Shown one piece after another: positions 3,526 to 38,700 of a DNA stretch of 38,700 bases. The stretch's first letter is position 1, and every line of letters begins with the position of its first letter. The notes under the pieces are model-generated. The model saw only the letters and a program-made list of their open reading frames with translations. It did not search any database and had not been told where the DNA came from. Source of the stretch: Caldilineales bacterium (lineage in GTDB: Bacteria > Chloroflexota > Anaerolineae > J102). Position numbers and translations under genes: made by a program. Location: assembly GCA_013360575.1 (NCBI GenBank), contig JABWBG010000005.1:1-38700 (forward strand). The letters run 5' to 3'.

Positions 3526-3650
3526 CAGTATTCAGTGGTCAGTATTCAGTATTCAGTCAGGGGGCAGTATTCAGTATTCAGTATTCAGTATTCAGTATTC
3601 AGTATTCAGTATTCAGTATTCAGTATTCAGTATTCAGTATTCAGTGGTCA
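3526..3650. repeat. TCAGTAT heptamer array
   Basis: About 17 near-perfect CAGTATT heptamers, interrupted by CAGTGGT and CAGTCAGGGGG variants, lie immediately upstream of the SDR gene start. No RBS or promoter can be seen inside it. Confidence 0.9.
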
Positions 3651-10428: not shown

Positions 10429-10655
<227 letters not shown>

Positions 10656-10669
10656 GGACAAAAACACTT

Positions 10670-11671
10670 ATGGCGACGATTTATTATGACAAAGACGCGG
10701 ACATTGCCCGGCTGCAGGGGCGCAAGATCGCGGTGCTGGGCTATGGCAGCCAGGGCCATGCCCACGCTCTCAGCCTGCAAGATAGCGGCCTGGACGTGCG
10801 CGTGGGCCTGTACAAAGGGTCAGGATCATGGGAAAAAGCGGAAGCAGCCGGGCTGCGGGTCGTCTCTACCACCCAGGCCTGCGCCGAGGCCGACATGATC
10901 ATGGTGCTGGCCCCCGACACGGTGCAGGCCAAAATCTACAAAGAGAGCATCGAGCCGAATCTGAAGCCGGGCAAGACGCTGATGTTCGGACACGGTTTCA
11001 ACATCCGTTTCGGGCAGATCGTGCCGCCCGATTTCGTGGATGTGAGCATGGTGGCCCCGAAGGCGCCCGGTCACCGCGTACGCGAGTTGTTCGTGGAAGG
11101 CACAGGCACGCCGGCGCTGGTGGCCATCTATCAGGATGCCAGCGGCCACGCTCTGGCTGACGCCCTGGCCTATGCCAAGGGCATCGGCTGCACCCGCGCC
11201 GGGGCCTTGCAGACCACCTTCAGCGAGGAAACGGAGACCGATCTGTTCGGCGAGCAGGCGGTGCTGTGCGGCGGCGTCAGCGCCCTGGTCAAGGCCGGGT
11301 TCGAGACGCTGGTCAACGCCGGCTATCAGCCGGAAGTAGCCTATTTCGAGTGCATGCATGAGCTGAAGCTGATCGTGGATTTGTTTTATCGCGGCGGCCT
11401 GGCCTACATGCGCTACAGCGTGTCCGACACTGCCGAGCATGGCGATTACCACGCCGGCGATCGCATCATTACTGCGGAAACGAAGGAGACAATGCGCCAG
11501 ATTTTGAGCGATATCCAGTCTGGAGCCTACGCCGAGGAATGGATCGACGAGAACGCCAACGGTCGCCCCCATTTCAACGCCCGCCGCGCCGCCGAACGCG
11601 AGCATCAGATCGAGCAGGTCGGTAAAGAACTGCGCAGTATGATGCCGTGGTTGAAGCCGGTGGAGGTTTAG
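10670..11671 (+). CDS. ilvC: Ketol-acid reductoisomerase (NADP+)
   Basis: Isomerises and reduces acetolactate or acetohydroxybutyrate to the dihydroxy acid, with Mg2+ and NADPH. At 333 residues it is a class I (short) enzyme. The N-terminal Rossmann domain has [18 protein letters not shown] (about residues 18-35) followed by the KGSGSWEKA loop that sets cofactor specificity. The metal-binding acids are in [17 protein letters not shown] (about 185-200) and [13 protein letters not shown] (about 225). The C-terminal knotted domain ends [24 protein letters not shown] lies 11 bases before the ATG. It is flanked by two large repeat arrays; its TAG stop runs straight into a TCAGTAT array. Confidence 0.96.
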
Positions 11672-11792
11672 TATTCAGTATTCAGTGTTCAGTGTTCAGT
11701 GTTCAGTATTCAGTATTCAGTGTTCAGTGTTCAGTATTCAGTATTCAGTATTCAGTGTTCAGTGTTCAGTAATCAGTATTTGGTAATCAGTG
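11671..11792. repeat. TCAGTAT/TCAGTGT heptamer array
   Basis: About 16 units of TTCAGTA and TTCAGTG start at the last base of the ilvC stop codon. An inverted shorter array (ACTGAATA units) stands at 11970-12017 before leuA, with a palindromic element between them, so the whole ilvC-leuA space (360 bases, no gene) is symmetric. Confidence 0.9.
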
Positions 11793-13699: not shown

Positions 13700-13701
13700 A
13701 A

Positions 13702-13945
13702 GTTGGTTGGTTGGTTGGTTAGTTAGTTGGTTAGTTGGTTAGTTGGTTGGTTGGTAAATTGGTAAGGATCGCCGCAAAAGTCACCAATCTACCAACTAAC
13801 CAACCAACCAACCAACCAACCAACCAACTAACCAACCAACCAACCAACTAACCAACTAACCAACCAACCAACTAACCAACTAACCAACCAACTAACCAAC
13901 TAACCAACCAACTAACCAACTAACCAACTAACCAACCAACCAACC
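13702..13945. repeat. GGTT array and inverted AACC array, second copy with same core
   Basis: Left arm GGTT/AGTT (13702-13757), core GGTAAGGATCGCCGCAAAA (13761-13779, identical to the ilvN-ilvC copy) and a long right arm of AACC/AACT units to 13945. It starts at the leuA stop and ends 6 bases before the leuC ATG, leaving no space for an ordinary Shine-Dalgarno. Confidence 0.92.
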
Positions 13946-30570: not shown

Positions 30571-30847
30571 CGGGTGGGTGGGTGGGTGGTTTGTTTGTTG
30601 GTTGGTTGGTTGGTTGGTTAGTTGGTTGGTTGGTGCGCGAGACTACACAAATTTACCAAATCTACCAACCACCTAACCAACCACCTAACCAACCACCTAA
30701 CCAACCACCTAACCAACTAACCAACTAACTAACCACCTAACCAACCACCTAACCAACTAACCAACTAACTAACCACCTAACCAACCAACTAACCAACTAA
30801 CCAACTAACTAACCACCTAACCAACCACCCAACTAACCAACCACCTA
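30571..30847. repeat. GGTT array and inverted AACC/ACCT array, third copy
   Basis: A left arm (GGTGGGT then GGTT units, 30571-30634), a different core (GCGCGAGACTACACAAATTT) and a long right arm of AACC, AACT and ACCT units reach the stop codon of the aminotransferase gene, so the gene's last codons abut the array. It fills the 279-base space between convergent genes. Confidence 0.9.
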
Positions 30848-38114: not shown

Positions 38115-38246
38115 GGGTGGGGACTGCGCTATCGGGGCAGAAGAATAGGGGGCCCAGCAGGGACAAATCGTCGAGAGAGGGGGGTCTATGGCAGTTGCGC
38201 CAAGAGCGACGGGGGCGCCGGCGTACCCGCGTCGTCGGATGTGTGG

Positions 38247-38321
38247 CTACCAGGGTGGGTCGCCTGGTTCGTCGTGTGCGAACAGCAGACCCAGCAGCCA
38301 CAGCAACTGCCAGATGGACAT
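38247..38321 (-). CDS. Tiny Trp/Leu-rich hydrophobic peptide with perfect Shine-Dalgarno
   Basis: A 24-codon ORF, too short for the track, begins with AAGGAGG, an 8-base spacer and ATG 38321, one of the best ribosome-binding sites in the window. It encodes MSIWQLLWLLGLLFA followed by HDEPGDPPW and TAG. Four Trp and seven Leu in 24 residues suggest a small single-span membrane peptide or a leader peptide. No gene follows on the same strand; rodA converges from the other side. Its SD-start region pairs with a sequence 39 bases upstream. I do not recognise a family. Confidence 0.5.
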   Translation of the reverse strand: MSIWQLLWLLGLLFAHDEPGDPPW

Positions 38322-38380
38322 GGCGAACACCTCCTTACGAGAGATGCACGCAGCAGAGCGCTCATTGGCGTGTTCGCCAT
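38320..38380 (-). promoter_or_regulatory. Hairpin sequestering the start codon of the tiny ORF
   Basis: On the minus strand ATGGCGAACAC (38380-38370) is the exact reverse complement of GTGTTCGCCAT (38330-38320), which contains the last SD base, the spacer and the first two start-codon bases. The 39-base loop contains the rest of the AAGGAGG motif. Such a stem would block translation unless opened. Confidence 0.55.
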
Positions 38381-38387
38381 ATACAAT

Positions 38388-38430
38388 AAAAAGCCTCCCT
38401 GCGAAGCTTACACTTCGGGGGAGGCTTTTT
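38388..38430. terminator. Bidirectional intrinsic terminator
   Basis: AAAAAGCCTCCC and GGGAGGCTTTTT form a 12-bp outer stem with a further CGAAG/CTTCG inner stem. T-runs are present for both strands. On the plus strand it can end the mre-rodA transcript; on the minus strand it can stop transcripts coming from the transposase side. Confidence 0.85.
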
Positions 38431-38540: not shown

Positions 38541-38700
38541 CTACCGGACATTTTCATGAAGGATTAGCTCGGGAGGTAAATCGAAGCGAACAGGCAAAGT
38601 GCAGCCGACCTTGAGATGATGCTTGAACCAGTCAAGACCGAGGCGAAAAAGGCTCTTGTCACGACGATGCGTGCGATCAACCAGACCTTGCATCCCGTCA
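38541..38700 (-). CDS. Transposase C-terminus, partial (gene continues beyond window)
   Basis: Reading the minus strand from the window end gives an open frame of 52 residues ending at TAG 38541: DGMQGLVDRTHRRDKSLFRL then GLDWFKHHLKVGCTLPVRF. The R-D-K-S-x-F-x-L-G-x-x-W pattern resembles the C-terminal end of IS4-type DDE transposases, from memory. Only this 3' end is visible, so neither its completeness nor its terminal repeats can be judged. Confidence 0.5.
   Translation of the reverse strand, partial: DGMQGLVDRTHRRDKSLFRLGLDWFKHHLKVGCTLPVRFDLPPELILHENVR

What the first reader, a model, noticed from the sequence alone, without database searches (positions are those of the whole stretch)
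38247..38380. Tiny Trp/Leu-rich ORF under a start-codon-sequestering hairpin
A 24-codon ORF with AAGGAGG at ideal spacing lies opposite the end of the rodA operon. Its start region pairs perfectly (11 bp) with an upstream ATGGCGAACAC. A strong RBS plus a masking stem is the pattern of regulated small membrane proteins, type I toxins or leader peptides; no downstream gene needs a leader here, so a free-standing small protein or a dual-function RNA is the more likely reading.
Basis: partly seen in the sequence, partly recalled or inferred. Interest (0 to 1): 0.62.

Follow-up and report, generated by a model that had tools for sequence, protein, structure and literature searches.

The report
Hidden micropeptide gene partnering protease-sigma operon
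A 24-amino-acid gene that annotation would miss turns out to be a real, conserved gene in a family of uncultured Anaerolineae bacteria, found only in genomes that also carry a sigma factor / anti-sigma / caspase-like protease operon, so it probably encodes a peptide that this protease switch senses or acts with.

Summary
The ORF is real. Six homologous micropeptide genes (23-26 aa, hydrophobic N-terminus, no Lys/Arg, C-terminus like DEPGDPPW) lie in 5 of 20 genomes of the window's family and were not detected elsewhere in the class. Substitutions favour third codon positions. rodA is incidental. In all four other genomes the ORF is convergent with an operon: ECF-like sigma, H-x3-C-x2-C (ZAS-like) anti-sigma, TPR-CHAT caspase-like protease. 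The window genome has that operon on another contig. All 5 ORF genomes are among the 8/20 operon genomes (p=0.004). Best reading (inferred): the peptide is a ligand of the TPR-CHAT protease, which would cleave the anti-sigma and free sigma, as Csx29-Csx30-CASP-sigma does, with peptide input as in Rgg/SHP. Toxin, sigma-output and inhibitor readings remain open.

The parts
38247..38321 (-). micropeptide ORF, 24 codons + TAG, MSIWQLLWLLGLLFAHDEPGDPPW
   Evidence: homologues in G002, G009, G011, G015 (two tandem copies), profile E 1e-11 to 1e-14; third-position bias 139/87/185 over codon positions 1/2/3 in pairwise comparisons; no hit in Pfam, NCBIfam, PHROGs
38330..38336 (-). Shine-Dalgarno AAGGAGG, 8 nt before the ATG
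   Evidence: sequence; GGAG present in all six copies
38323..38351 (-). local SD-sequestering hairpin GCGUGCAUCUCU-CGUAA-GGAGGUGUUCGC
   Evidence: z = -4.6 in window, -4.1 G011, -6.2 G002, -2.3 G009; absent in G015a/b
38346..38373 (-). conserved dyad ACACG-n5-GAGCGCTC-n5-CGTG in the leader
   Evidence: pattern search of 20 family genomes finds it upstream of the ORF in all 5 ORF-bearing genomes; the only 2 other hits lie inside apparent coding sequence; reversed-pattern control gives 3 hits. The second, tandem copy G015b has a degenerate left arm
   Evidence: not conserved in G002, G009, G011
38388..38430 (.). bidirectional terminator-like hairpin AAAAAGCCTCC..GTAAG loop..GGAGGCTTTTT
   Evidence: z = -7.0; same position and (T/C)GTAAG loop in G009, G015a, G002, not seen in other terminator-like hairpins of the fetched loci; not clear in G011 or G015b
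38204..38236 (-). 3' hairpin with GCCGGC in the loop, no U-tract
   Evidence: GCCGGC-loop hairpins with different stem sequences at the same place in G011, G002, G015a, G015b and after the CHAT stop in G013; weak by z-score in the window itself (-0.7); G009 has a strong hairpin with another loop
37020..38114 (+). rodA, convergent neighbour in the window only; not part of the system
   Evidence: relatives' rodA loci lack the ORF; in G001 an ORF that reads as glutaminyl-tRNA synthetase follows rodA

Best explanation
A conserved micropeptide gene that belongs functionally to an ECF-like sigma / ZAS-type anti-sigma / TPR-CHAT protease operon. Shown: homology, coding selection, the leader dyad, SD masking (predicted) in most copies, convergent linkage in 4/4 genomes where the flank is visible, and restriction to genomes with the operon. 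Inferred: the 23-26 aa peptide, through its conserved acidic/proline C-terminus ending in Trp, is a ligand (activator or inhibitor) of the TPR superhelix of the TPR-CHAT protease. The protease, when released, would cleave the anti-sigma and free the sigma factor. Peptide output is held low by the masked SD, probably by regulation through the leader dyad, and possibly by antisense read-through of the convergent operon up to the two-way terminator. In the window genome the peptide gene has become separated from the operon and would act in trans.
For: Homologues and coding selection. Dyad specific to these ORFs. Convergent with sigma-ZAS-TPR-CHAT in G002, G009, G011, G015. Pfam/NCBIfam: CHAT E 1e-37 to 1e-46, TPRs, sigma70-ECF. 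H-x3-C-x2-C is invariant in the middle protein of all six aligned genomes. Catalytic His/Cys invariant in CHAT. Operon present in the window genome on C187, cut by the contig end. ORF in 5/20, operon in 8/20, ORF never without operon, Fisher p = 0.0036. The three operon genomes lacking the ORF all have contigs that end before the place where it would lie. TPR matches include peptide-bound pheromone receptors of the Rap type. A TPR-CHAT cleaving a sigma inhibitor is established for Csx29-Csx30-CASP-sigma (PMC10028731). SHP pheromone genes lie next to, and in group III convergent with, their TPR receptor gene (PMC13361665). PapR's C-terminal ADLPFEF (acid, Pro, aromatic) binds a TPR (PMC5007282). 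Tandem propeptides, compare G015, are known for RRNPPA pheromones (PMC11343458 abstract).
Against: No direct evidence that the peptide is made or binds anything. TPR matches are generic: non-pheromone TPR proteins score equally. The peptides have no Lys/Arg, so the Lys-Lys export signal of RRNPPA propeptides (PMC9765709) is absent; the peptide may stay inside the cell. The N-terminus is hydrophobic enough for a simple membrane peptide. SD masking is not found in G015. Only six copies, in metagenome-assembled genomes. In the window the gene is not linked to the operon. Anti-sigma function and cleavage are inferred from motif and gene order.
Confidence: 0.4

Rival explanations
1. Type I toxin-like or stress effector: a short hydrophobic peptide that damages the membrane, held off by SD masking and by antisense read-through from the convergent operon, released when the operon is silent or the leader refolds.
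For: Size, hydrophobic stretch, masked SD, structured leader and 3' end, tandem copies in G015, possible full coverage by a convergent transcript up to the two-way terminator (inferred).
Against: Acidic, no basic residue in any copy; the C-terminal acidic/proline part is as conserved as the hydrophobic part; linked to a protease-sigma operon rather than to a dedicated antisense gene; no promoter for a short antisense RNA found.
Confidence: 0.2
2. Output gene: the micropeptide is a target or effector of the sigma factor (for example a membrane adaptor), not its input.
For: Dyad occurs almost only before these ORFs; the ORF keeps the dyad when unlinked in the window; only in operon genomes.
Against: The dyad does not look like an ECF -35/-10 pair (spacing about 19-21 nt and variable) and was not seen upstream of the sigma operons.
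Confidence: 0.2
3. Membrane-bound partner or decoy substrate: the peptide anchors or blocks the anti-sigma or the CHAT active site (securin-like), keeping the switch off.
For: Hydrophobic N-terminus with a soluble acidic tail; CHAT is separase-like and separase is held by the inhibitor securin (PMC9729208).
Against: Separate, convergent transcription with its own masked SD does not suit a stoichiometric inhibitor.
Confidence: 0.13
4. Chance ORF or passenger of a mobile repeat.
For: Transposase remnants near the window and G002 copies; one copy per genome, two in G015.
Against: Frame, SD, C-terminus and dyad conserved at about 38-77% peptide identity with third-position bias; no repeat family in the genome.
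Confidence: 0.03

Closest known systems
CASP / Craspase: Cas7-11, TPR-CHAT protease Csx29, Csx30, CASP-sigma (PMC10028731, PMC9729208)
   Same: TPR-CHAT protease with intact His/Cys dyad encoded with an ECF-type sigma and a candidate sigma inhibitor.
   Different: No CRISPR genes seen beside the operons (neighbours scanned are rho, methylmalonyl-CoA mutase, lgt, MauG-like, gcvT); inhibitor is a ZAS-motif protein, not Csx30; the Csx29 model scores far below its cut-off (36 vs 300 bits); a micropeptide sits where an input would be needed.
RRNPPA quorum sensing, especially Rgg/SHP group III and PlcR/PapR (PMC13361665, PMC5007282, PMC9765709)
   Same: Short hydrophobic peptide gene beside and convergent with a TPR protein gene; conserved C-terminus with acid, proline and aromatic; tandem peptide genes in one genome.
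   Different: The TPR protein carries a protease, not an HTH or phosphatase; Chloroflexota, not Bacilli; no Lys-Lys export signal; no binding shown; lies roughly 50-150 nt away without overlapping the TPR gene.
Type I toxin peptides (Fst/Ldr, TimP)
   Same: Short, hydrophobic, structured mRNA.
   Different: No basic residues, no dedicated antitoxin RNA identified, linkage to a protease-sigma operon.

Membership tests
CASP (Csx29-Csx30-CASP-sigma) | TPR-CHAT with catalytic His/Cys | tested here: met
   Pfam CHAT E 1e-37 to 1e-46, TPRs; His and Cys invariant
CASP (Csx29-Csx30-CASP-sigma) | ECF sigma in the same operon | tested here: met
   TIGR02937 above cut-off for G009 and G015; Sigma70_r4_2 in all four tested, just below cut-off in G002
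CASP (Csx29-Csx30-CASP-sigma) | Cas7-11 and CRISPR array at the locus | tested here: not met
   no cas gene among the five flanking proteins scanned in L101, L103, L104, none recognised by inspection elsewhere; arrays not searched specifically
ZAS anti-sigma factors | H-x3-C-x2-C motif next to a sigma gene | tested here: met
   invariant in six genomes; no Pfam anti-sigma model hit
RRNPPA receptor/pheromone pairs | peptide gene adjacent to a TPR receptor gene | tested here: met
   4/4 genomes with a visible flank; not in the window
RRNPPA receptor/pheromone pairs | Sec-type export signal with Lys-Lys in the propeptide | tested here: not met
   no Lys/Arg in any copy (sequences)
RRNPPA receptor/pheromone pairs | peptide binds the TPR domain | not testable with these tools
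   only generic TPR similarity
Type I toxin-antitoxin | antisense RNA antitoxin overlapping the toxin mRNA | tested here: inconclusive
   convergent read-through possible; no antisense promoter found in the window region
Type I toxin-antitoxin | toxicity on expression | not testable with these tools
   needs an experiment
Leader peptide / attenuator | regulated gene downstream on the same strand | tested here: not met
   a convergent gene follows in all loci; only the tandem copy in G015 has anything downstream on the same strand

The most novel reading that the evidence does not exclude
A peptide-sensing caspase-like protease: a Chloroflexota micropeptide read by the TPR domain of a CHAT protease that degrades an anti-sigma factor, i.e. 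peptide signalling coupled to regulated proteolysis instead of to an HTH regulator, with the RNA-guided input of CASP replaced by a peptide.
Probability: 0.3. Interest if true: 0.85.

Novelty: new variant of a known kind. Interest (0 to 1): 0.6.

Why it matters
The best-described way to switch on a bacterial TPR-CHAT protease is an RNA-guided complex. A conserved micropeptide tied to a sigma / anti-sigma / TPR-CHAT operon offers a simple, testable second kind of input and suggests what CASP-like switches may look like outside CRISPR. It also shows that 24-codon genes absent from every family library tested (Pfam, NCBIfam, PHROGs) can be recovered by combining a leader motif, a C-terminal motif and gene-neighbour evidence.

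Tried and rejected
Repeat or MITE: one copy in the genome. Known RNA family: no Rfam match. Conservation 3' of rodA: none. Homologues outside the family: the weak hits inspected (L036-L060) lie mostly inside other frames with no SD; only L056 was real; 396 class genomes gave no further clear hit. Phage origin: no match. The inverted repeat in viral contigs: none. Dyad as an ECF promoter: spacing about 19-21 nt and variable, not seen upstream of the sigma operons. Leader dyad as a stable RNA hairpin: z between 0 and -2, not supported. AlphaFold model of TPR-CHAT: TPR part confident, CHAT part poor with four sequences, so fold matches speak only for the TPR part. Literature: no paper found on the peptide or, beyond the CASP paper, on CHAT domains with ECF and anti-sigma factors.

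Full report
Observation. On the minus strand the window holds AAGGAGG (38336-38330), an ATG at 38321 and 24 codons to a TAG ending at 38247, as described. The 11-bp inverted repeat 38320-38330 / 38370-38380 is exact. Repeats of that length are expected about once per window by chance, so the repeat alone proves nothing.

The ORF is a gene. A search of 298 relatives with the 24-aa peptide found weak but real matches. With a profile the set is six copies in five of the twenty genomes of the window's family: G000 (window), G011, G009, G002 and two tandem copies in G015, E 1e-11 to 1e-14 in the class search. The peptides are MSIWQLLWLLGLLFAHDEPGDPPW, MLSIMQLLWLLAVLFSEPGDPPW, MLSILQLLWLLGAIWNDEPGTEPW, MFTLFHLFWLFGALWSDDPGDPSW, MITLVWLWALLGAISTGGDEPGNPPW and MITFVWLWALLGAISTGDDEPISDPW. 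All have an SD. All end in Trp after an acidic, proline-rich stretch. None has Lys or Arg. Substitutions by codon position are 139, 87 and 185 over all (non-independent) pairwise comparisons, the pattern of coding selection. The peptides match no model in Pfam (window copy tested), NCBIfam or PHROGs, and no further clear copy was found among 396 class genomes.

The surroundings of the ORF. Four features recur. First, a 26-28 bp dyad ACACG-GRGCGCYC-CGTG in the leader; in twenty genomes the pattern finds every ORF-bearing genome and two chance sites inside apparent coding sequence. Its arm spacing varies by one base and it does not fold well as RNA, so a protein-bound operator is as likely as an RNA element. 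Second, a hairpin that masks the SD using a pyrimidine tract just upstream: z -4.6, -4.1, -6.2 and -2.3 in window, G011, G002 and G009, and absent in both G015 copies. Third, a terminator-like hairpin with a (T/C)GTAAG loop before the leader in window, G009, G015a and G002. Fourth, a 3' hairpin with GCCGGC in the loop and changing stem sequences in window, G011, G002 and G015, and also just after the CHAT gene of G013; G009 has a different loop.

The partner. In G002, G009, G011 and G015 the ORF is convergent, about 50-150 nt apart, with a three-gene operon. The first gene encodes an ECF-like sigma factor. The second encodes a protein of about 240 aa with an invariant H-x3-C-x2-C, the ZAS motif of anti-sigma factors (motif recognised from general knowledge of that family). 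The third encodes a TPR-CHAT protein of about 1000 aa with an intact His/Cys dyad. Strong matches to the second protein occur in exactly eight of the twenty family genomes, including the window's own (C187). In the window genome, G003 and G012 the TPR-CHAT gene runs off its contig; in G013 the contig ends about 61 bp after it, in the GCCGGC hairpin. Thus the ORF is present in 4/4 cases where the flank can be seen. All five ORF genomes are among the eight operon genomes (Fisher p 0.0036; relatedness of genomes not corrected for). G009 and G015, which share the longer leader type, are also the closest pair in sigma and nearly so in anti-sigma, as expected for joint inheritance. In the window the ORF stands beside rodA and is unlinked to the operon, so rodA is incidental.

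Mechanism. Proteolysis of a sigma inhibitor by a TPR-CHAT protease is established in CASP (PMC10028731), where a guided RNA complex gives the input. These loci lack that input and have a micropeptide gene instead. Peptide pheromone genes that lie beside, and in one group convergent with, a TPR receptor gene are known from Rgg/SHP (PMC13361665). A TPR receptor reads the C-terminal acid/proline/aromatic peptide of PapR (PMC5007282). Sequence and fold searches with the TPR part return Rap-type pheromone receptors among other TPR proteins, which is suggestive but not specific. I therefore favour the peptide as a ligand of the TPR-CHAT protease, at 0.4. Against secretion, there is no basic export signal. 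Toxin, sigma-output and inhibitor readings share most of the rest.

Novelty. The peptide family is undescribed in the libraries and papers searched. The operon resembles CASP without CRISPR. I call the whole a new variant of a protease-controlled sigma switch; it would be a new kind of peptide sensing if binding were shown. Names from genome contigs place the relatives in Anaerolineae / Caldilineales metagenome-assembled genomes.

Noticed in passing
window 10430-10654, 13701-13945, 30575-30847: Long intergenic arrays of TTGG / AACCAACC-type units, and CAGTATT heptamer arrays at 959-1003, 3526-3645 and 11670-11792. They account for several of the window's inverted repeats; function unknown.
   Followed up: no
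window 38114 onward versus L003 2703-4091: In G001 rodA is followed by an ORF that reads as glutaminyl-tRNA synthetase; the window differs, with the micropeptide element and a transposase-like remnant (38541-38693) at the contig end, suggesting an IS-linked rearrangement.
   Followed up: partly
L138 (G000:C187), L139 (G003:C136), L140 (G012:C216), L141 (G013:C440): Four assemblies break inside or just after the TPR-CHAT gene, which may mean a repeat or a hard-to-assemble structure at the CHAT / micropeptide junction.
   Followed up: partly
L104 6709-7110: Tandem duplicated micropeptide genes in G015; the second copy has lost the left arm of the dyad and the upstream terminator hairpin and has a TATAAT about 67 nt before its ATG.
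   Followed up: partly
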